Source: a virus
Strand: one strand, 5' to 3'
Length of the DNA stretch: 64,000 nt
IMG/VR virus record: IMGVR_UViG_3300030419_006105
Location: 1-64,000 of that record
How positions within the stretch are numbered: the first letter of the stretch is position 1; every line of letters begins with the position of its first letter. Below the pieces are notes generated by a model, which saw only the letters and a list, made by a program, of their open reading frames with translations, searched no databases and was not told where the DNA came from. Of the stretch, positions 1,173 through 62,623 are shown piece after piece. The translations under genes were made by a program, and so were the position numbers.

Positions 1173-2006
1173 ATGACGATTAAGGTATCTCATGAATCTC
1201 CAATAGCTCTTCTTCCAGAGTCTGTAGATTATAACGATTATCAGTATTGCTTAGTTCATCTTATGGAAGAACAAGAACAATATAAAGAATGGTTTCTAGA
1301 AAAATATCAAGCTAAAGTACCATATGGTGAAATTCTCTTAGATAATTCCATCTTCGAGCTTAAAGAAGCATTTGATTCAGAAAAATACGCTGTTTGGTGC
1401 GAGAGAATTAAACCTAATTATTATATTGTTCCAGATGTTTTAGAAGATTCATGGGCAACTATGACTAAAATGGAAGAGTGGGATAAACAATATGGAAATG
1501 ATTTACCTGGATTAAAAATTGGTGCTGTGCAAGGTAAAACTTGGACCGAAATTGTTGAGTGTTATAGGTTCATGACAGCGTATGCTGATTATATTGCTAT
1601 TAGCTTTGATTTAAGCATGTATCAAGTAACAGGTACTAGTGGTAAGATTGATATAAATCCAAAACTTAAAAGACAAATGACTGGTCGTCAGCACCTAGTA
1701 AAGAGATTAATTGATGAAGGATGGTGGGACTGGGAAAAACCTCATCACTTGTTAGGAGCATCTCTTGCAAGAGAATTTAAATGGTATGTAGATAATAATA
1801 TCTACAATATTAGAAGTCTGGATACCTCTAACCCTGTAGTAGCTGGTCTATTAGGTCATACCTATAATGGAGACTTTGGGCTTAATATTAAACCGTCAAC
1901 ACTATTAGCTGATTTGATTAACGCTCAACCAGACGAGGATGCAATAGAACGTATTGAATATAATACAAGTCAATTTAAGCGCATTATTAAAAGAGAAGAT
2001 TGGTAA
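1173..2006 (+). CDS. dpdA: DpdA-like 7-deazaguanine DNA transglycosylase (TGT paralog)
   Basis: A 277-residue protein resembling phage DpdA, the tRNA-guanine-transglycosylase relative that exchanges guanine in DNA for a 7-deazaguanine base. Visible family-like blocks are LLDNS (55-59), IVPDVLED (85-92), a VQG turn (119-121), HHLLGAS (191-197) and RSLDTSNP (214-221). It is shorter than tRNA TGTs and lacks an RNA-binding extension. The ATG at 1173 is fixed by the promoter six bases upstream. It heads an operon that ends with queF, and folE, queD, queE and queC lie elsewhere in the window, so substrate supply is encoded. The assignment rests on motif recognition and context; the catalytic aspartate was not identified by alignment. 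Confidence 0.75.
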   Translation: MTIKVSHESPIALLPESVDYNDYQYCLVHLMEEQEQYKEWFLEKYQAKVPYGEILLDNSIFELKEAFDSEKYAVWCERIKPNYYIVPDVLEDSWATMTKMEEWDKQYGNDLPGLKIGAVQGKTWTEIVECYRFMTAYADYIAISFDLSMYQVTGTSGKIDINPKLKRQMTGRQHLVKRLIDEGWWDWEKPHHLLGASLAREFKWYVDNNIYNIRSLDTSNPVVAGLLGHTYNGDFGLNIKPSTLLADLINAQPDEDAIERIEYNTSQFKRIIKREDW

Positions 2007-2587
2007 TGAAGTGGATAGCATTCTTTAGTCAGACTGGGTCTGAAATCGCGAACATCTCTAAAAAAATAAAAAGGTGGCCTGATCTTGTAGTCACTAATAA
2101 ACAGGATAATAAAGATGTAAATGTTGAACTACTATATCATTATAGAAAAGGTACTGAGGATAGTATAATTAGATTACCTAAATGGCCTAAAGAAATGGAT
2201 TATATTAGAGCAGCAGATGCTTTAAATTATTCTATTCTTAATGAGGATTGGAAGAAAGATGTGTTTGTAACTTTACATGGTTATCTTAGAATATTACCTC
2301 GTGATTTTACTAGATCGTCTAATATTTTTAACGGACATCCAGGAGCTATTCATATTCATCCTGAACTTAAAGGTTTTAATCCTCAAAAGAAAGCTTGGGA
2401 AGCAAACCATATTCGAGTCGGGTGCGTTATTCATAAAGTAACCCCCGAGCTCGATGATGGTCCTATTGTAGCTAAATCATTGATTGACAATAAGTTCAAT
2501 ACATATGAAGAGTTAGAAAAAGGACTACACGTTGAATCTACAAAACTTTGGATAAATTTTTTAAATGAAAGACTACGACACAATTAA
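2006..2587 (+). CDS. PurN/GART-like formyltransferase, putative modifier of a deazaguanine base
   Basis: A 193-residue protein with the formyltransferase fold and its catalytic set. NGHPG (109-113) supplies the Asn and His, and ELDDGPI (148-154) supplies the Asp of the N-x-H...D triad known from glycinamide ribonucleotide transformylase. These enzymes move a formyl group from 10-formyltetrahydrofolate to an amine. The ATG overlaps the dpdA stop by one base (TAATG), implying translational coupling; a TTG six bases upstream is a poorer start. Other de novo purine genes are absent from the operon and queF is nearby, so the aminomethyl group of preQ1 is an attractive acceptor. That is inference. 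A role in formylating an amino sugar of the glycan island is an alternative. Confidence 0.75.
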   Translation: MKWIAFFSQTGSEIANISKKIKRWPDLVVTNKQDNKDVNVELLYHYRKGTEDSIIRLPKWPKEMDYIRAADALNYSILNEDWKKDVFVTLHGYLRILPRDFTRSSNIFNGHPGAIHIHPELKGFNPQKKAWEANHIRVGCVIHKVTPELDDGPIVAKSLIDNKFNTYEELEKGLHVESTKLWINFLNERLRHN

Positions 2588-2915
2588 AACATCGGTTGAG
2601 AAAGATTACCCTGAGACATGTAATATGTTGAAGAATCTTTTAGAAGAAGAATATAGGCTCTTTATACGCAAACAATACGACTACGGTCCTACGAATATTT
2701 CCGTCGGTCAAGACTTATCTAAACCTGATGGCCAGCATGTTGCTAAGGCTGGACTAGTATTCCGTGTTAATGATAAAGTACAGAGACTCATTAATCTCAT
2801 CATTAAGAAACGTAGTACAGAAGCTGCCAATGAACCTATTGTTGATGCATGGAAAGATTCAAGTTTATATTGCAAAATTGCTCAGATAGTCGATAATGGT
2901 GTCTGGGGTAAATAA
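2565..2915 (+). CDS. DUF1599 / nucleotide modification associated domain 1 protein
   Basis: A 116-residue, all-helical protein. The block YRLFIRKQYDYGPTNIS near residues 31-47, then GLVFRVNDKVQRLINL near 63-78 and a closing NEPIVDAWKDSSLY near 90-103, match the DUF1599 pattern. That family is also called nucleotide modification associated domain 1 because it occurs beside DNA base-modification genes, and it resembles all-alpha NTP pyrophosphatases. Its reading frame begins inside the 3' end of the formyltransferase gene, so the two are probably translated together. A plausible role is hydrolysing or processing a nucleotide intermediate; no activity can be read from the sequence. Confidence 0.7.
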   Translation: MKDYDTIKTSVEKDYPETCNMLKNLLEEEYRLFIRKQYDYGPTNISVGQDLSKPDGQHVAKAGLVFRVNDKVQRLINLIIKKRSTEAANEPIVDAWKDSSLYCKIAQIVDNGVWGK

Positions 2916-3469
2916 TGTTAGTATCATTTACAGGTGCACAGAGTAGCGGAAAAACTACTCTGTTGCGTCGTTTTTTAGAAGATCATCCTTGGGGTAGTGT
3001 TGATGAAGTAACACGACGTATTCGTCGTGACGGTTTCGTTATTAACGACGACGGAATTGATTACAATGATACACAGTTAGCTATTTTCGCAGATCATTTA
3101 CAGAACATATTTACTTATAGCGGTAAACAAATGAATAATATTTTAGATCGCTGTATTGTAGATGGTTTTATTTATACGAGATATTTTCGTAAGTTAGGAA
3201 AAGTAAATGAATTTGTTGATAAAATGTTTAACTATGCTCTAAAGAGATATATAGAAAAATATGATTGTATTTTTTATACTAATCCATATGATGTTCCTCT
3301 TATTAATGACGGTGAAAGATCTATGAGCGAAAGCTTTAGGAATCAAATTATTGAATTATATGAACATTTAATATTAAATAAATATCCTAATATTTATATA
3401 CTTGAAGGTAGTGTAGAAAGTAGATATAATCAAATGGAAGAAATTATTGCTAATGTCAAAACTAGATAA
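2915..3469 (+). CDS. P-loop ATPase/kinase of the AAA_28 (NadR kinase-like) type
   Basis: A 184-residue protein with an N-terminal Walker A motif GAQSSGKTT (7-15) and a mid-protein ILDRCIVDGF stretch that looks like the acidic lid and substrate region of small-molecule kinases. Its length and layout resemble AAA_28/NadR-type ATPases. It starts on the TAATG junction with the DUF1599 gene and its end overlaps queF by 17 nt, so it is a true member of the modification operon. A related protein lies at 43697-44464, close to queE. Phosphorylating a nucleoside or base intermediate would fit the context, but the substrate is unknown. Confidence 0.65.
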   Translation: MLVSFTGAQSSGKTTLLRRFLEDHPWGSVDEVTRRIRRDGFVINDDGIDYNDTQLAIFADHLQNIFTYSGKQMNNILDRCIVDGFIYTRYFRKLGKVNEFVDKMFNYALKRYIEKYDCIFYTNPYDVPLINDGERSMSESFRNQIIELYEHLILNKYPNIYILEGSVESRYNQMEEIIANVKTR

Positions 3470-4364
3470 TAAAAACGTAAGTAAGCATTTAGGTAAAACG
3501 AGTCAATATAAATCTCAATATGACCCTAAATTACTAGTAAGAGAGCCACGATCAAGTAATCGCAAGCATCTAGGTATTAAAGAAAAGGATTTACCTTTTA
3601 TCGGTTGTGATGTATGGAATGGATATGAAATATCTGCTCTAGCGAATAACGGTGTACCTATATGCGGAGTTGCTAAAGTTGTATATCCAAGTGATAGTAA
3701 ATATATTGTTGAATCTAAATCAATGAAGTTGTATTGGAATAGTTTTAATATGACTAAAATGGGAGATACCTTCTCACAAGTATATAAAAATATAGAAGAA
3801 ACTGCTTCAAAAGATTTAAGCAAATATCTACAAACAGATGTACGTGTAACTGTATTTCCATGTCATACGGAATTTACTGATAATAATCCTTATAATGATA
3901 ATACGTATAAGAGATTAGAAAGATCAGATGAGATAGACCCTGCAGGGTATTATGTAGATGTTTACAGTGAAGACCCTAGTCTGTTAACTACTAAACATAA
4001 AAACGCTACAACTATACCTTTTAAGGCTATGTCATCTCTACTTAAAAGTAACTGTCGTGTTACTTCACAGCCTGATTGGGGTGATGTATTTATATCATTA
4101 GAAGGTACTGACCATCCTTCAGAAAAAGAACTATTAAAATATATTATCTCTTTTAGAGATGAATGTCATTTTCATGAAGAAATTTGCGAGACGATCTTTA
4201 CTAGATTAAATAATACGTTTAATCCTAGATCTCTATTAGTAGCATGTTTGTATGTAAGGAGAGGAGGATGGGATATTAATCCTATTAGAACCACTCACGA
4301 ATATCTAATAGATGAATTCTTCTGGGATGATAAAGTTCCGTGGATTAAGACACTTAGACAATAA
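3453..4364 (+). CDS. queF: NADPH-dependent 7-cyano-7-deazaguanine reductase QueF (bimodular type)
   Basis: Reduces the nitrile of preQ0 to the aminomethyl group of preQ1. The 303-residue length and order match the long, E. coli-type QueF. It has an N-terminal TSQYKSQYDPKLL block, ESKSMKLYWNSFN (87-99), the catalytic Cys in LLKSNC (Cys201) and the proton-donating Asp in QPDWG (Asp208), and a C-terminal RRGGWDINP. The start is the ATG at 3453; a TTG two codons upstream only lengthens the frame. It is last in the dpdA operon, followed by a strong terminator. Its presence shows the phage makes preQ1 rather than stopping at preQ0, which gives the adjacent formyltransferase an amine to act on. Confidence 0.93.
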   Translation: MSKLDNKNVSKHLGKTSQYKSQYDPKLLVREPRSSNRKHLGIKEKDLPFIGCDVWNGYEISALANNGVPICGVAKVVYPSDSKYIVESKSMKLYWNSFNMTKMGDTFSQVYKNIEETASKDLSKYLQTDVRVTVFPCHTEFTDNNPYNDNTYKRLERSDEIDPAGYYVDVYSEDPSLLTTKHKNATTIPFKAMSSLLKSNCRVTSQPDWGDVFISLEGTDHPSEKELLKYIISFRDECHFHEEICETIFTRLNNTFNPRSLLVACLYVRRGGWDINPIRTTHEYLIDEFFWDDKVPWIKTLRQ

Positions 4365-43526: not shown

Positions 43527-43700
43527 TGCTTTGCGCATTCTTTCAAATAATGTCCTTTTATTTTGACCACTCTCAATTAATCTAGAATATTCTGCTTTAA
43601 AAGCTTCTATAAATTCTGGAGATAAATCAAACTTACGAGGATAAAACGATCTTACTCTTTTTATCATATATTTCTCGCATAATTTATCGTAATCAGTCAT
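43509..43700 (-). CDS. Hypothetical protein, 63 aa
   Basis: Not recognised. A 63-residue basic helical protein (MTDYDKLCEKYMIKRVRSFY...). It starts on an ATGA overlap with the kinase gene upstream, which supports it as a real gene, and its tail overlaps the convergent phoH gene. It may be an accessory of the queD-queE-kinase operon, but there is no direct evidence. Confidence 0.6.
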   Translation of the reverse strand: MTDYDKLCEKYMIKRVRSFYPRKFDLSPEFIEAFKAEYSRLIESGQNKRTLFERMRKALTFHL

Positions 43701-44464
43701 CGATAATTATTTAATCGATTCTGCTGTTTATCTTTAGCTATTTTTTCTTGTAATTTCTTCTTTAATACAGAATCCTCTTCTGGGTCAACATCTTTCCATA
43801 CTTCTTCTAGTTTTTTAATTTCTTCTAAAGTTTCTTCATCTAAAATATTACCGGGAGCTGATGCTTCACCTGACGGATCAATATATAATTTTAATATTTC
43901 TATACGCTCTGTACGACTACCAAATACTTCAATAATAGCTGGTTTATCATCTACTATAAAAAACGTAGTTTTAGGGTTTTCTTCATGATCTCGATGAACA
44001 GCTTTAAAAATATTATCTATCTCTTCTATAGTTTGAGGATTAGTTTCTCTTAAATCATCTTCCTCTAAAGGAACAAGAGCTACCTTTGTAATAGGTGTAA
44101 AAAATATAATATCTAAATTTCGAAAACTTTCTCTTACCAGTGGAATACACTTTTTAATAAACTCATCGTCGATGTCATTATCTCGTTGCTCTGCTGCCCA
44201 TAAACTATACACCAAATTATCTAATGGGCATCGATCAAAAATAACATTCTGACCTCGCCTATATTTTTGTTGCTCCTCAATCATAAAATTGAGAATTTCC
44301 CATTGAGTTTTTTTATTAGTCTTAGAGGAATGATCTAAATCATTTTCTTTAATAATGTCCCTATACGTTTTTTTGGGTGTAACATAATTAGGCCATTGTC
44401 CTAGAAAGTCTTTAATTAAAGTAGTCTTTCCCTGACAAGCTGTACCACTAATTGCAATCCTCAT
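43697..44464 (-). CDS. P-loop ATPase/kinase, AAA_28/NadR-like, with C-terminal extension
   Basis: A 255-residue protein. Walker A is SGTACQGKTT (6-15), an IFDRCPLDNL acidic-lid motif lies near residue 75 and IIFFTPITKVAL near residue 113, the same order as the protein at 2915-3469. Some 75 extra C-terminal residues are acidic and coiled-coil-like. It lies 17 bases downstream of queE on the same strand. Having two such kinases, each beside deazaguanine genes, suggests a linked role such as phosphorylating a modified nucleoside. The substrate is unproven. Confidence 0.7.
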   Translation of the reverse strand: MRIAISGTACQGKTTLIKDFLGQWPNYVTPKKTYRDIIKENDLDHSSKTNKKTQWEILNFMIEEQQKYRRGQNVIFDRCPLDNLVYSLWAAEQRDNDIDDEFIKKCIPLVRESFRNLDIIFFTPITKVALVPLEEDDLRETNPQTIEEIDNIFKAVHRDHEENPKTTFFIVDDKPAIIEVFGSRTERIEILKLYIDPSGEASAPGNILDEETLEEIKKLEEVWKDVDPEEDSVLKKKLQEKIAKDKQQNRLNNYR

Positions 44465-44481
44465 ATATTATATTTATTAAG

Positions 44482-45243
44482 TTAAACTTTTAAAGCCATA
44501 TCCCATACAAGTAAATGCAATCTAGGACTAAATTTAAAATATTCTTGTTTAGCATACTCAGCTACTTCTTCAGCTATTTCAATATGCTCTTTTCTACTAC
44601 CTGCACAAGGCATTAACCAAACCCTTTCTCTTGGTATATTAAACTTCTCAACATACTTCTGTAAGACCTCTTCTAAATCTTCTTTCTTACTAATAACAAA
44701 CTTAAAACCTGACCCATTTGTTACATGCCATTTTAATACATCTGGTTTATATCGACGGTCTTCTGGATCACCATTATTACTAAGCTTAGGAGAAGTAGTA
44801 AAAGTTGCATCAACTCTTAACCATTCTGGATCTGGCATTATTGTTGCATTAGTTTCAAAATCTATCCGTGGTATAGTACCCCACTCTACATCTATATAAG
44901 CTAAAAATTTAAGTAATTTTGGTTGTTGTACAAGTGGTTCACCACCTGTTATCTTCCATATAGCACCATTATCTAAGTGTTTTTTATATCCTTCCTCTTC
45001 TAATAACGTTCTAAGTTCTTCAAAACTTAATTTATTTTTTACACTCCATGATATATAGCTATCACAACCATGAGGTGAATCTTCTGTTGCAAATCCTTGA
45101 CATGTAAGATTACACATAGATAATCTCATAAAAACAGACGGCCAACCAACATATTCACCTTCACCCTCTACCGTATAAAATACCTTATCGTCAGATAAAA
45201 ATATTTTTTCGTCTTTAAGCTCCTCCTTATAAAGATTTGTCAT
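44482..45243 (-). CDS. queE: 7-carboxy-7-deazaguanine synthase QueE (radical SAM)
   Basis: A 253-residue radical SAM enzyme that contracts carboxytetrahydropterin to CDG. FYTVEGEGEYVGWPSVFMRL (22-41) is the usual QueE opening, WKITGGEPLVQQ lies near residue 97, and FETNATIMP and SPKLSNNG follow. The cluster cysteines are C44-NLT-C48 with the third at C60, so the last spacing is 11 residues (ATEDSPHG insert) instead of the short spacing of ordinary radical SAM motifs. QueE proteins are known for variant cluster loops, so it may still be active. The start lies inside the 3' end of the small gene between queD and queE. Confidence 0.9.
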   Translation of the reverse strand: MTNLYKEELKDEKIFLSDDKVFYTVEGEGEYVGWPSVFMRLSMCNLTCQGFATEDSPHGCDSYISWSVKNKLSFEELRTLLEEEGYKKHLDNGAIWKITGGEPLVQQPKLLKFLAYIDVEWGTIPRIDFETNATIMPDPEWLRVDATFTTSPKLSNNGDPEDRRYKPDVLKWHVTNGSGFKFVISKKEDLEEVLQKYVEKFNIPRERVWLMPCAGSRKEHIEIAEEVAEYAKQEYFKFSPRLHLLVWDMALKV

Positions 45244-45376
45244 TTAAATATAAATCTTTTATATCTCGTGTCTCTGGTTTAACCTCTTTCTTCTTAGGTT
45301 TACCCCAATCAATACTATCCCAGTTATCATTAACTTGACAAGTATCTTCTTTTCGTCTTTTACTACCTTTACTCAT
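45227..45376 (-). CDS. Small basic protein coupled between queD and queE
   Basis: A 49-residue frame not long enough for most gene lists. It begins MSKGSKRRKEDTCQVNDNWD and contains WDSIDWGKPKKKEVKPETRD. The ATG overlaps the queD stop by one base (TAATG) and its end overlaps the queE start by 17 bases, so all three would be translated from one message. It is strongly charged with a single cysteine and no known motif. Tight coupling on both sides is the main evidence that it is real. Confidence 0.6.
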   Translation of the reverse strand: MSKGSKRRKEDTCQVNDNWDSIDWGKPKKKEVKPETRDIKDLYLNDKSL

Positions 45377-45861
45377 TAGTTTTGAACCCATTCGTATTGA
45401 GTATCTGATAAAGCTCTGGCATATTCAATATGATATATAGCAGAATTTTTCTCATGCTCAAAAACTTCTACCTTCTTACACCAACATCTATTATCAGTTG
45501 ATTCCTTTACATAATCATCAGCAGCTTTCCAGCAATATTGTGCAAATTTTTCAATACCAACTCCATCAGACATAATACGTAAATCAATTATACCTAATTC
45601 ATTTAATTCTTCAAATTTATTTAAATATGGATCGTTTGCATCAATAACCGTAGTATGATCAAATTGATTTTCTAATATTTTCTTTAAATGTTTCAAATCT
45701 CCAAAATCAACAACCCAATTATTTTCATCTAATTCTTTAGCTTCAAACCAAAATTTACCAACTAATCGATAACCATGTACAAACCGACAATGTGAATCTG
45801 CTTTTGGTTGTCTAAAGGCGCAGCTGCCTAATTCAATAATCTTTGTACTATTAAAAGACAT
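45376..45861 (-). CDS. queD: 6-carboxy-5,6,7,8-tetrahydropterin synthase QueD
   Basis: A 161-residue member of the QueD/PTPS family that converts dihydroneopterin triphosphate to carboxytetrahydropterin. The catalytic-Cys region reads SHCRFVHGY (23-31), NNWVVDFGDLKHLKKILENQ and FDHTTVID follow, and a C-terminal VEVFEHEKNSAIY provides the Glu. In standard QueD the zinc site is HGH; here it is HGY, so one His ligand is replaced. A marine phage subfamily may share this, which I recall but cannot verify. It heads the queD-small-queE-kinase operon, divergent from folE across 72 bases with back-to-back promoters. Confidence 0.85.
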   Translation of the reverse strand: MSFNSTKIIELGSCAFRQPKADSHCRFVHGYRLVGKFWFEAKELDENNWVVDFGDLKHLKKILENQFDHTTVIDANDPYLNKFEELNELGIIDLRIMSDGVGIEKFAQYCWKAADDYVKESTDNRCWCKKVEVFEHEKNSAIYHIEYARALSDTQYEWVQN

Positions 45862-45933: not shown

Positions 45934-46569
45934 ATGAGTGAATTACTGCAATATGCAAATGGTAACTTACCGCGAACTGAAGAAGAAAAAGAAATAATTA
46001 TTGATAAAGCCGCGGCTGCATATGAAAAATATATGGATGCTTTAGGGTTTGATTGGAGAAATGATCCTAATAGCGCTGATACCCCAAGACGTGTAGCAAA
46101 AGCTTTTGTTAATGACTTAGCAGAAGGTTGTTATAATGTACCTCCTAAAATTACAGCATTTGATAATGTTGATAAATATGATGGATTAGTTTTTCAAGGT
46201 AATATAAAAGTTAATTCTTTTTGCTCACATCACCATTTACCGTTTATCGGGCAAGCTCATGTATCTTACATACCTGGAAAAGACGGAAAAGTAATTGGTT
46301 TAAGTAAAATAAATCGAATTGTCGAATGGTTTTCGAGACGTCCGCAAGTACAAGAAAACTTAACTATGCAAATTCATAATTATATGAATGAAGTATGTAA
46401 AGATAATAAAGGAATTGCTGTTTTAGTATCAGCTAACCATACTTGTGCTGGTCTAAGAGGAGTAAAACATGATAGTATTATGAAAACTGCTAGAATGTCA
46501 GGAGCATTTTTAGATAAAACTGATTTAACCAGACAAGAGTTTTATGATTTTATAAGAGACTTAAAGTGA
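45934..46569 (+). CDS. folE: GTP cyclohydrolase I (FolE)
   Basis: A 211-residue enzyme that opens GTP to dihydroneopterin triphosphate, the first step to both folate and 7-deazaguanine. DPNSADTPRRVAKAFVNDL (near residues 46-64), NSFCSHHHLPFIGQAHVSYI with the zinc Cys and His (about 93-112), GLSKINRIVEWFSRRPQVQE and the zinc Cys in SANHTCAGLRG are all present. The length is typical. The gene is monocistronic; its stop overlaps the convergent nucleotidyltransferase gene end by nine bases. Its promoter matches that of queD, so both are expected to be expressed together. Confidence 0.96.
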   Translation: MSELLQYANGNLPRTEEEKEIIIDKAAAAYEKYMDALGFDWRNDPNSADTPRRVAKAFVNDLAEGCYNVPPKITAFDNVDKYDGLVFQGNIKVNSFCSHHHLPFIGQAHVSYIPGKDGKVIGLSKINRIVEWFSRRPQVQENLTMQIHNYMNEVCKDNKGIAVLVSANHTCAGLRGVKHDSIMKTARMSGAFLDKTDLTRQEFYDFIRDLK

Positions 46570-59259: not shown

Positions 59260-60348
59260 ATGGCTTCTCTCGCTGATAAAGCGTTCGCTAAATTACAAAA
59301 ATTAAATCAGAACGCAACTACATTAGAAAATAATACTCTAAGTAATGTAACCGAATGGATTGATACTGGATGTTTAGTACTTAATTCAATAGTATCAGGT
59401 TCGATTTATGGTGGTGTACCTAAGGGTAGAATTACCATTTTTGCTGGAGATTCTGGTTGCGGTAAAACATTTATTTTAAATAAAATATTAGCGAACGCTC
59501 AGCAAAAGGGAATGATTCCAATCATATTTGATACGGAGGTTGCTGTAGAAAATGAAGGTGCAGAAAATGTTGGATTAGATACATCAAACGTAAAGTACGT
59601 ACCAGTTGATACAGTAGAAAATTGTCGTAATCAAATTATGACCTTTTTAGATGAAGTTGAAAAAGAACCAGAACTACATGGTAAGTTTATTATTTCAATT
59701 GACTCTTTAGGTAATTTAGCGTCATCAAAAGAAATTCATGATGCTGAATCTAATAAAGGCGCCATGGATATGGGGCTAAGAGCTAAACAGCTTAAATCCA
59801 TGATGCGTATGGTTACGTTTAAAGCAGCTGTTACTGGTACAACTGTAATTTGTAGTAATCATACTTATGCTGATCCTGGTGCACTCCATCCTACCTTAGT
59901 TAAGTCCCAGGCTGGTGGCTCTGGTCCCATATACATGGCGTCTATATTAGTACAAATGGCAGCGAAAAAAGAACGAACTGATACAGGTAATGATAGTGAT
60001 GAAGCTTTAACCGAGAGTAGAAATTACTCTGGTGTTACTCTTCGTATGTTAACAGTAAAAAATAGATTTATACCTGCATTCCTTCAAGGTGAAGCATACT
60101 TAAACTTTAAAACTGGTTTAGAAAAATACTCAGGTCTAAAAGACGTTGCTGTAGCTCACGGCATTATTCAGCAAAACGGTTCTACATATAGTATGGGAGA
60201 TAAAAAATTAGGTTATTATAAAAATTGGCGCAACGATGATGAGACGTGGAATAATATATTACCTAAGTTAGAATCTTCTATAAGTGAGAAGTACCGATAT
60301 GGTAAATCACTTAATGAAGTAGCTATATTAGAACAAGACGATGAGTAA
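59260..60348 (+). CDS. uvsX: UvsX, RecA-like recombinase
   Basis: A 362-residue recombinase. Walker A is FAGDSGCGKT (about 62-71), FDTEVAVENEGAE lies near 90, Walker B is IISIDSLGNLAS (about 143-154), and SNHTYADPGALHPT with a SQAGGSGPIYMAS L2 region follows, as in T4 UvsX. The start is the ATG at 59260, two bases after the previous stop; an ATG four codons upstream would overlap the preceding gene. UvsX drives strand exchange with gp46/47 and UvsW, all encoded here. Confidence 0.95.
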   Translation: MASLADKAFAKLQKLNQNATTLENNTLSNVTEWIDTGCLVLNSIVSGSIYGGVPKGRITIFAGDSGCGKTFILNKILANAQQKGMIPIIFDTEVAVENEGAENVGLDTSNVKYVPVDTVENCRNQIMTFLDEVEKEPELHGKFIISIDSLGNLASSKEIHDAESNKGAMDMGLRAKQLKSMMRMVTFKAAVTGTTVICSNHTYADPGALHPTLVKSQAGGSGPIYMASILVQMAAKKERTDTGNDSDEALTESRNYSGVTLRMLTVKNRFIPAFLQGEAYLNFKTGLEKYSGLKDVAVAHGIIQQNGSTYSMGDKKLGYYKNWRNDDETWNNILPKLESSISEKYRYGKSLNEVAILEQDDE

Positions 60349-61036
60349 AGCAGTAGTTCCTATTTCGGGTGGTTTAGATAGTTCAATAATTCTAAGCTTA
60401 GCATCTCAAAAGCATGATGAAGTTTATGCATTAACTTATGACTATGGTCAAAAGCATAGAAAAGAAATCATAGCTGCTAGTAGTCAAATAAATGAATATG
60501 ATAATATAGAAGATCATGTAACTATAGATATTAGATTCTTTAGAGATATTGCTTCAACTTCTTCTCTTACTAATAATAATATTAAAGTGGCACATGCGAG
60601 GGATGTGTTAGGAGACGCTCAAACAGTAAATTATGTTCCATTTAGAAATATGATGATGCTATCAATTGCATGCTCATATGCAGAGTCAGTAGAAGCAGAT
60701 GTCGTATATCATGGATCAGCTCTAGTAGATAGTCAAGCTGGTTATTGGGACGGTAGTGCAGAATTTTTAGAACAAATTAATAACGTAACAGCGTTAAACC
60801 GTAAAAATAGAATACGGATAGAAGCACCATTAATTACATTATCTAAACAAGAAATTGTAAAGTTAGGTATCGATAATAATATAAATTTTGAAGACACATG
60901 GACATGTTATGAAGGGAAAGATAAAGCATGTGGTTATTGTACGGCATGTAGTTCTCGAATACAAGGCTTTTTGCAAAATAATATTAAAGACCCAATAGAA
61001 TATGAACGCGACGATATCCCCTGGAAAGGAACTTGA
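60341..61036 (+). CDS. queC: 7-cyano-7-deazaguanine (preQ0) synthase QueC
   Basis: A 231-residue PP-loop ATPase that turns CDG through the amide (ADG) into preQ0. The ATP-binding VPISGGLDSSIIL (6-18), YDYGQKHRKEI (39-49) and VNYVPFRNMMML (105-116) blocks and the C-terminal zinc motif ending ACGYCTACSSR are all typical. It overlaps uvsX by eight bases and is cotranscribed with replication genes. The nearby amidotransferase (61958) may feed it ammonia; in some phages the two are fused as Gat-QueC. Confidence 0.95.
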   Translation: MSKAVVPISGGLDSSIILSLASQKHDEVYALTYDYGQKHRKEIIAASSQINEYDNIEDHVTIDIRFFRDIASTSSLTNNNIKVAHARDVLGDAQTVNYVPFRNMMMLSIACSYAESVEADVVYHGSALVDSQAGYWDGSAEFLEQINNVTALNRKNRIRIEAPLITLSKQEIVKLGIDNNINFEDTWTCYEGKDKACGYCTACSSRIQGFLQNNIKDPIEYERDDIPWKGT

Positions 61037-61955
61037 GTATAGTGATGTACTGTTAGTACCTAAGTACAGTATATTACAGTCTCGTAAAGACGCAAATACT
61101 ACTCTATATGTAGGTAAGTTTAAATTTAATTTACCAGTTGTTCCTGCAAATATGGAGACTGTAATAAGTTTAGAACTTGCCAAAAAATTAGATGAGTTAG
61201 GTTATTTTTATATTATGCACCGATTTGAAGATGTAGTAAGATCGTGCGAATATATGAATAGAAATAAGTTTAAATGTATTAGTTTAAGTATTGGTGTTAA
61301 TTCACAATCTTATGAACAAATAGATAAAATTTTAGACAAAAAATTACGAGTAGATATTTTTACAATTGATGTAGCACATGGACATCATGTTAAAGTACAA
61401 AACATGATTCACTACATAAAAAATAAATTACCGAGTTGTGTTATTATAGCTGGTAATGTAGGGACATATGAAGGTTTTAAATATCTTGAAAAAGCAGGTG
61501 CAGATATTGTAAAAGTAGGAATTGGTTCTGGAGTAATATGTACAACTAGATTTAAAACAGGTTTTGGTACACCTATGTTTTCAACCATAACAAAAATAGC
61601 ACAATCAGATAATACTGCTAAAATTATGGCAGATGGTGGTTGTAAACATTTTGGTGATATTGCTAAAGCGTTTGTGGCAGGTGCTGATATGGTTATGGCA
61701 GGTTCTTTTTTTGCATCATGTATTGATTCACCAGCAAAGTTAGTTAACGGTATTAAACAATATTACGGTAGTACATCTTATAATCAAAAACAAGATAGGT
61801 TAAATTTTGTTGAAGGTAGAGAAGTTGAGTTAAACCTAGCACCAGAATATGAAATTAGATTAAAAGAAATACAAAGCGCTTTACAAAGCTCTCTTTCTTA
61901 TGCTGGTGGTTATGATTTAACTTGCCTTAAACAAGTAAAGTATATAACATTATAA
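61002..61955 (+). CDS. GMP reductase / IMP dehydrogenase family protein, GuaC-like
   Basis: A 317-residue TIM-barrel oxidoreductase without CBS domains. EYSDVLLVPKYSILQSRKDA opens the barrel, VPANMETV follows, FTIDVAHGHH lies near 123, the active-site loop is VGIGSGVICTTRFKTGFG (about 172-189), and MADGGCKHFGDIAKAFVAGA follows. The CTTRxKTG loop and short length favour GMP reductase (GMP to IMP) over IMP dehydrogenase. It overlaps queC by 35 bases and nearly abuts the amidotransferase. It may tune purine pools for GTP-derived deazaguanine, or recover guanine nucleotides after base exchange. This is inference. Confidence 0.85.
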   Translation: MNATISPGKELEYSDVLLVPKYSILQSRKDANTTLYVGKFKFNLPVVPANMETVISLELAKKLDELGYFYIMHRFEDVVRSCEYMNRNKFKCISLSIGVNSQSYEQIDKILDKKLRVDIFTIDVAHGHHVKVQNMIHYIKNKLPSCVIIAGNVGTYEGFKYLEKAGADIVKVGIGSGVICTTRFKTGFGTPMFSTITKIAQSDNTAKIMADGGCKHFGDIAKAFVAGADMVMAGSFFASCIDSPAKLVNGIKQYYGSTSYNQKQDRLNFVEGREVELNLAPEYEIRLKEIQSALQSSLSYAGGYDLTCLKQVKYITL

Positions 61956-61957
61956 TT

Positions 61958-62623
61958 ATGTGTGGAATATTTGGATCAAACAATATAGAAACGTTTAGAG
62001 AGCTGTATATTAAAAACACAGAACGTGGTAATTTTGTACGCAGTATAACAAAATTATTCCCTGCAGGAACTAGAAATAATATACGAGTAGAAACTAATTA
62101 CGAGCAAGATTTAGGTAAACATATACATGAAAATCCGTTTTGCATGTATTACTTAGGTCACTTACAATCACCAACATCTAAAGTAAGAGATTTTAATAAA
62201 ACAACTAGCCATCCGTTTAATTTAAATAATCAATATCTTGCTCATAATGGAGTATTAGAAAATGATAGAGATTTAATTGAAGAATATAACCTAGAAGGAT
62301 ATAATGATGTGGATAGTAGTGTAATATTACCGTTAATAGAAAAGATTGGATTTGAAGACGCAATATCTTCTTTACAAGGAACGTTTAGTTGTTGGTATTA
62401 TAATAGTAACACTGGGAGTTTACGGATATTTAGATCTGGTTCTACATTATTTTCTAACGGTGGAGATTTTAGTTCAATACAACCAGAAACTGACCACGAA
62501 AGAGTCAATAGCTTAGGATATAAATATATAAACGAAGGGTCTATATTAGAATATAACTTTACTTCTAACACTTTTAAGGAGGTTAATCAGTTTGAACTTA
62601 ATAAGACTCCGTTCTTTTTATGA
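61958..62623 (+). CDS. Class II glutamine amidotransferase, stand-alone (Gat)
   Basis: A 221-residue Ntn-type glutaminase. Cys2 is exposed after Met removal (MCGIFGS), and the glutamine-site blocks YYLGHLQSPTS, TSHPFNLNNQYLAHNGVLEN and NDVDSSVILPLIEKIG match the GlmS/PurF/AsnB amidotransferase half. The synthase half that normally follows is missing. Only the guaC-like gene separates it from queC, and Gat-QueC fusions are known in phages that make amidated deazaguanine. It could thus supply NH3 to QueC. A different partner in glycan synthesis is an alternative. Confidence 0.88.
   Translation: MCGIFGSNNIETFRELYIKNTERGNFVRSITKLFPAGTRNNIRVETNYEQDLGKHIHENPFCMYYLGHLQSPTSKVRDFNKTTSHPFNLNNQYLAHNGVLENDRDLIEEYNLEGYNDVDSSVILPLIEKIGFEDAISSLQGTFSCWYYNSNTGSLRIFRSGSTLFSNGGDFSSIQPETDHERVNSLGYKYINEGSILEYNFTSNTFKEVNQFELNKTPFFL

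What the first reader, a model, noticed from the sequence alone, without database searches (positions are those of the whole stretch)
1173..2587. Formyltransferase coupled to DpdA: candidate for a formylated preQ1 base
A PurN-like enzyme with its N-x-H...D catalytic set starts on the dpdA stop codon (TAATG), and queF in the same operon provides preQ1, which has the free aminomethyl group such an enzyme needs. From memory, a (formylamino)methyl-7-deazaguanine has been described in phage DNA; I cannot confirm the source here. This operon looks like a self-contained genetic basis for it in a T4-type phage.
Basis: partly seen in the sequence, partly recalled or inferred. Interest (0 to 1): 0.85.

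Follow-up and report, generated by a model that had tools for sequence, protein, structure and literature searches.

The report
Phage enzyme that formylates a DNA base
This marine T4-like phage carries the genes to swap guanine in its DNA for the modified base preQ1 and then very probably to cap that base with a formyl group; the chemistry is already reported from other phages, but the enzyme that does it has, as far as we know, not been proven, and here its family is shown to be widespread and tightly tied to this pathway.

Summary
Window 1173-2006 encodes a DNA guanine transglycosylase (predicted TGT fold; nearest relatives are the immuto and Campylobacter CP220-type proteins, the group called DpdA3). 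On its stop codon (TAATG, 2004-2008) starts a 193-aa formyltransferase with the full N-x-H...D set. queF follows in the same operon (3453-4364), and folE, queD, queE and queC are elsewhere in the window. The formyltransferase is not PurN (42 bits against a 150-bit cut-off). In 98 relatives the catalytic triad is invariant and the folate-site arginine nearly so (95/98), but two residues that PurN uses for its substrate are replaced (N13 to E, 98/98; E173 to S/A, 97/98). Relatives lie downstream of dpdA in 86/86 scorable loci and are followed by queF in 71/71; none was found in 84,980 bacterial and archaeal genomes. It is not new in kind: fdPreQ1 and a predicted dPreQ1 formyltransferase (DpdN) were reported by Cui et al. 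2023 (recalled; not readable here). New here: the family's size and viral-only spread, the specificity-residue swap, a DpdN-linked partner protein (sometimes fused), a near-universal kinase-like DpdA3 partner, and a queC-amidotransferase pair.

The parts
1173..2006 (+). dpdA, DNA guanine transglycosylase of the DpdA3 (CP220/immuto) group
   Evidence: 48% identical to the immuto protein annotated DpdA, 37% to CP220; TGT fold, top 17 PDB hits; D57-N58-S59, Q120-G121, H192-L193-L194-G195 and D217 at least 97% invariant in 123 sequences
2006..2587 (+). formyltransferase (DpdN-type), proposed preQ1/dPreQ1 N-formyltransferase; catalytic N109, H111, D150
   Evidence: Formyl_trans_N 9.6e-11; PurN fold; triad 98/98, R95 in 95/98, E13 98/98; PurN equivalog cut-off not met
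2004..2008 (+). TAATG stop/start overlap of dpdA and dpdN
   Evidence: read directly
2565..2915 (+). 116-aa phrog_1485-like protein of unknown function; DpdN partner candidate
   Evidence: phrog_1485 6e-9; in 48 of 98 DpdN loci and 0 of 32 DpdA loci without DpdN; fused to DpdN in 4 loci
2915..3469 (+). AAA_28 P-loop kinase-like protein, near-universal DpdA3 partner
   Evidence: Pfam AAA_28 7e-14; present in 96 of 98 scorable DpdA3 loci, including CP220 without DpdN or QueF
3453..4364 (+). queF, NADPH-dependent preQ0 nitrile reductase (makes preQ1)
   Evidence: QueF_N/QueF Pfam hits; NADPH motif ESKSMKLYWNS and catalytic KSNC...QPDWG present (sequence)
44482..45243 (-). queE (radical SAM, Cys-X3-Cys-X11-Cys)
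   Evidence: phrog_2076 QueE-like 3e-46; NCBIfam QueE models below their cut-offs
45376..45861 (-). queD-like
   Evidence: PTPS 1.3e-18; phrog_2389
45934..46569 (+). folE, GTP cyclohydrolase I
   Evidence: PF01227 1.2e-46
60341..61036 (+). queC
   Evidence: PF06508 7e-58; TIGR00364 equivalog cut-off met, 169.7 against 150.3
61958..62623 (+). class-II glutamine amidotransferase beside queC
   Evidence: GATase_6 7e-11; near queC in all 11 long records with a homologue

Best explanation
The phage makes preQ0 from GTP (FolE, QueD, QueE, QueC) and QueF reduces it to preQ1. The DpdA3 transglycosylase exchanges guanines in phage DNA for the deazaguanine. The PurN-fold enzyme DpdN transfers a formyl group from 10-formyl-tetrahydrofolate to the aminomethyl nitrogen, giving 2'-deoxy-7-(formylamino)methyl-7-deazaguanine (fdPreQ1), an uncharged bulky base that should block restriction enzymes. 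Supported by computation: the gene set, folds, intact catalytic residues, the strict DpdA/QueF linkage, and loss of residues that bind the PurN substrate. Inferred: the formyl donor, the acceptor and the product. Open: whether formylation precedes or follows insertion into DNA.
For: 86/86 scorable loci have dpdA upstream on the same strand and 71/71 have queF downstream; 5 of 5 DpdA3 loci without QueF also lack DpdN, while 18 have QueF without DpdN, so DpdN occurs only where preQ1 can be made (Fisher p = 5e-4, not corrected for relatedness). Triad N109/H111/D150 98/98, folate-site R95 95/98, PurN substrate residues replaced. The family forms one clade (support 100/100) apart from PurN, Fmt, ArnA and the cyanophage formyltransferase. 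PurN fold and TGT fold. No relative in 84,980 bacterial and archaeal genomes against at least 555 viral stretches. Same gene order in cultured Flavobacterium phage immuto. It is the only Formyl_trans_N protein in the phage record.
Against: No biochemistry or mass spectrometry for this phage. The folds come from predictions with shallow alignments (26-28 sequences). A queC-linked glutamine amidotransferase could instead or also make archaeosine (G+), as proposed for Gat-QueC phages (PMC6884629). QueF misses the NCBIfam equivalog cut-off (260 against 293 bits), though its motifs are intact. The sampled loci are partly related, so counts are not independent events.
Confidence: 0.82

Rival explanations
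1. The enzyme is a phage PurN (GAR transformylase) that boosts purine synthesis during infection, as annotated in cyanophages such as P-SSM2; its place beside dpdA is incidental.
For: PurN is the closest solved fold and the best NCBIfam hit; cyanophages carry PurN-like genes.
Against: 42 bits against a PurN cut-off of 150. N13 is replaced by E in 98/98 and E173 by S/A in 97/98, whereas the P-SSM2 sequence keeps the N and E (sequence). Strict linkage to dpdA and queF. Separate clade with 100/100 support.
Confidence: 0.04
2. The enzyme formylates an amino sugar nucleotide for the large glycosyltransferase and sugar-nucleotide cluster at about 17-42.7 kb.
For: Such a cluster appears to be present in the window (ORF starts), and some sugar formyltransferases share the fold.
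Against: It is not in that cluster. The sugar formyltransferase model scores 22.9 against a 238 cut-off. The protein is 193 aa, only a catalytic domain, while the sugar enzymes matched are about 240-310 aa. It follows dpdA and precedes queF across loci.
Confidence: 0.03
3. DpdN acts on the free base preQ1 and DpdA3 then inserts formyl-preQ1, rather than DpdN acting on DNA; same final base, different order.
For: Invariant E13 at the PurN phosphate-binding position could read the N1/N2 face of a free guanine-like base (inference). Median pI of the family is 6.2, not typical of DNA binders.
Against: The window protein itself is basic (pI 9.0). Cui et al. named the enzyme a dPreQ1 (DNA-level) formyltransferase (recalled). 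The partner protein could provide DNA contact.
Confidence: 0.4
4. The final base is archaeosine or a mixture: the queC-linked glutamine amidotransferase with QueC makes G+, and DpdN acts on something else.
For: The queC-amidotransferase pair is conserved in 11 of 11 long records with a homologue, and in a DpdA2-type Vibrio phage.
Against: QueF with an intact NADPH motif and DpdN would be unexplained. The amidotransferase does not hit PHROG 10428, the Gat-QueC-like family whose C-terminal part QueC matches. The pair also occurs where DpdN is absent (G011), so it probably serves a shared step.
Confidence: 0.07

Closest known systems
DpdN, predicted dPreQ1 formyltransferase, and the base fdPreQ1 (Cui et al. 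2023, Nucleic Acids Res 51:9214, doi 10.1093/nar/gkad657; cited in PMC12783734; content recalled, not readable here)
   Same: Formyltransferase coupled to a DpdA transglycosylase and preQ1 supply; same predicted product.
   Different: Uncultured T4-like phage; new sequence group, 40% identical to the immuto enzyme.
Flavobacterium phage vB_FspM_immuto_2-6A cassette (NC_055915)
   Same: Order dpdA - formyltransferase - kinase-like - queF, with folE, queD and queE upstream.
   Different: A small unknown gene sits between dpdA and the formyltransferase; no phrog_1485-like gene; family A DNA polymerase beside the cassette, whereas the window phage has a family B polymerase.
Campylobacter phage CP220 DpdA3 locus
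   Same: Related DpdA (37%) with the kinase-like gene next to it.
   Different: No formyltransferase or queF at the locus; [quoted passage not shown]
PurN, GAR transformylase
   Same: Fold, catalytic N-x-H...D, folate-site arginine.
   Different: Substrate residues replaced; score far below the equivalog cut-off; viral only.
Vibrio phage nt-1 / Schizotequatrovirus DpdA2 system (PMC6884629)
   Same: T4-like phages with folE, transglycosylase, queF, queC and amidotransferase.
   Different: DpdA2-type transglycosylase, no formyltransferase at the locus; nt-1 carries dG+, dPreQ0 and dADG.

Membership tests
DpdN (dPreQ1 formyltransferase) | Formyl_trans_N domain with catalytic N-x-H...D | tested here: met
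DpdN (dPreQ1 formyltransferase) | encoded with dpdA and queF | tested here: met
   86/86 and 71/71 scorable loci
DpdN (dPreQ1 formyltransferase) | orthology to the published type protein | tested here: inconclusive
   Orthologous to the immuto enzyme (40%; one clade), but I could not read which protein was used as type
DpdN (dPreQ1 formyltransferase) | fdPreQ1 present in phage DNA | not testable with these tools
   needs mass spectrometry
PurN (TIGR00639) | equivalog score cut-off 150.1 bits | tested here: not met
   42.4 bits
PurN (TIGR00639) | GAR-binding residues N13 and E173 | tested here: not met
   E13 in 98/98; S/A at 173 in 97/98 (role of these residues from established PurN structures, recalled)
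Sugar N-formyltransferase | family model score (NF005755, 238 bits) | tested here: not met
   22.9 bits
DpdA3 | sequence relation to the CP220-type group, not to 9g or nt-1 | tested here: met
   tblastn hits only immuto, Campylobacter and weak Bacillus phages; that CP220 is the DpdA3 type group is recalled
DpdA3 | TGT fold and catalytic aspartates | tested here: met
   fold; D57 and D217 invariant; assignment as catalytic is by motif, since profile alignment to E. coli Tgt was weak
DpdA3 | complete replacement of guanine in DNA | not testable with these tools
   needs nucleoside analysis
QueF (nitrile reductase) | Pfam QueF_N and QueF above gathering score | tested here: met
QueF (nitrile reductase) | TIGR03138 equivalog cut-off 293 | tested here: not met
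   260 bits, nearly full length; NADPH and catalytic motifs are present in the sequence

The most novel reading that the evidence does not exclude
DpdN and the phrog_1485-like protein form a two-part, sometimes fused, base formylation enzyme in which an invariant glutamate at the former phosphate-binding loop reads the guanine face of preQ1, and the kinase-like partner of DpdA3 is an unrecognised core component of large-scale base exchange. fdPreQ1 would then be a common DNA base of aquatic T4-like phages.
Probability: 0.25. Interest if true: 0.6.

Novelty: new member of a known kind. Interest (0 to 1): 0.42.

Why it matters
As recalled, the formyltransferase step was predicted but not demonstrated. 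This work gives a large viral-only family, a clear residue signature that separates it from PurN, and a minimal gene set for testing in E. coli. It suggests formylated deazaguanine is widespread in uncultured T4-like phages, and it names three unassigned partner genes of the pathway.

Tried and rejected
Megablast of the first 12 kb against phages: no match. Pfam and PDB sequence searches for the DpdA protein: nothing significant; resolved by fold search. hhalign of the DpdA family against single E. coli Tgt: weak (E 0.021), so residue mapping rests on motifs and fold. Profile searches of the phrog_1485-like protein in Pfam and PDB: nothing; my guess that it is a DUF1599-type domain was not supported. 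Guanine salvage by a phage phosphoribosyltransferase was tested as a role for the kinase: none found in this record. Cui et al. 2023 is not held. Papers naming DpdN or fdPreQ1 in the held library: none found.

Full report
Observation. Both ORFs and the TAATG overlap are present as described. The window belongs to a 116,366-base IMG/VR virus record, a T4-like phage by its gp23-type capsid (31-36% to cyanophage capsids), G+C 31%. The gene order is dpdA (1173-2006), formyltransferase (2006-2587), phrog_1485-like (2565-2915), AAA_28 kinase-like (2915-3469), queF (3453-4364). The other preQ0 genes are folE 45934-46569, queD 45376-45861, queE 44482-45243 and queC 60341-61036. The operon alone is not self-contained, but the genome is.

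What the two proteins are. The transglycosylase has no Pfam hit, but a confident model (pLDDT 91) has tRNA-guanine transglycosylase structures as its top 17 PDB matches. By sequence it belongs with immuto (48%) and Campylobacter CP220 (37%) proteins, not with 9g or nt-1. The second protein has a PurN fold (model pLDDT 88) and a Formyl_trans_N hit. It scores 42 bits against the PurN equivalog cut-off of 150, and far below the Fmt, PurU and sugar formyltransferase cut-offs.

Residues. In 98 non-redundant relatives N109, H111 and D150 (E. coli PurN N106, H108, D144) are invariant, and the folate-site arginine R95 (PurN R90) is kept in 95. Positions that in PurN contact glycinamide ribonucleotide (recalled from PurN structures) are changed: N13 is E in all 98, E173 is S or A in 97. 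The cyanophage P-SSM2 formyltransferase keeps the PurN letters (sequence) and falls outside the family, which is one clade with 100/100 support (sparse outgroup). The formyl-donor half is therefore kept and the acceptor half rebuilt.

Linkage. Relatives come from viral contigs only: at least 555 matched stretches, none in 84,980 bacterial and archaeal genomes; plasmid hits are ordinary purN and purU genes where annotated. Among 130 non-redundant loci, DpdA lies upstream in 86/86 scorable cases and QueF downstream in 71/71. DpdA3 loci split into 75 with DpdN and QueF, 18 with QueF only, 5 with neither, and none with DpdN but no QueF. This is the pattern expected if DpdN needs preQ1. The counts are not phylogenetically independent.

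Mechanism. FolE, QueD, QueE and QueC make preQ0; QueF, with its NADPH motif and catalytic Cys/Asp intact (sequence), makes preQ1; DpdA3 puts it in DNA; DpdN formylates the amine. The donor, product and order are inferred. The order is open: an invariant glutamate at the former phosphate loop suits recognition of a guanine face, and the family's median pI (6.2) does not argue for DNA binding, but the window protein is basic (pI 9.0).

Partners. The phrog_1485-like gene is found in 48 of 98 DpdN loci and in none of 32 DpdA loci without DpdN, and is fused to DpdN in four loci. It is not exclusive to the pathway: a 40% relative sits among replication genes of Microcystis phage Mel-JY01. The kinase-like gene accompanies DpdA3 in 96 of 98 scorable loci, even where DpdN and QueF are absent. 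A class-II glutamine amidotransferase sits near queC in this phage and in all ten other long records with a homologue, and in a Vibrio DpdA2 phage.

Known or new. From memory, Cui et al. 2023 reported fdPreQ1 in phage DNA, proposed DpdN as dPreQ1 formyltransferase and defined DpdA3; only DpdM was validated there. I confirmed the paper's existence, not its content. The finding is thus a new member of a known kind, with stronger comparative support for an apparently unproven step. Interest 0.42.

Noticed in passing
window 60341-62623: queC is followed by a GMP reductase-like gene and a class-II glutamine amidotransferase; queC and the amidotransferase lie close together in all 11 long records with a homologue and in a Vibrio DpdA2 phage, which suggests a split Gat-QueC or an ammonia donor for QueC.
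   Followed up: partly
window 45376-45861: The QueD-like protein lacks two of the three zinc histidines of the PTPS/QueD family (SHR to F/Y-RQ, HGH to HGY); the same holds in all 18 phage QueD sequences aligned, while the catalytic Cys stays (ligand roles recalled).
   Followed up: partly
window 2915-3469: AAA_28 kinase-like gene, weakly similar to the NadR kinase domain, accompanies DpdA3 in nearly all loci including CP220; role unknown.
   Followed up: partly
window 2565-2915; L151, L152, L153, L155: phrog_1485-like protein tied to DpdN and fused to its C-terminus in four loci.
   Followed up: partly
L112, L117, L173, L174, L182: A GMP reductase-like gene is inserted between dpdN and the kinase-like gene in some relatives.
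   Followed up: no
window 43697-44464: A second AAA_28 kinase-like gene lies next to queE and queD.
   Followed up: no
window 16400-42700: Large cluster of apparent glycosyltransferase, sugar-nucleotide and related genes, judged from translated starts only.
   Followed up: no
L070, L104, L110, L120: DpdA3 loci without QueF and DpdN, three of them with the kinase-like gene; probably a different deazaguanine end product.
   Followed up: no
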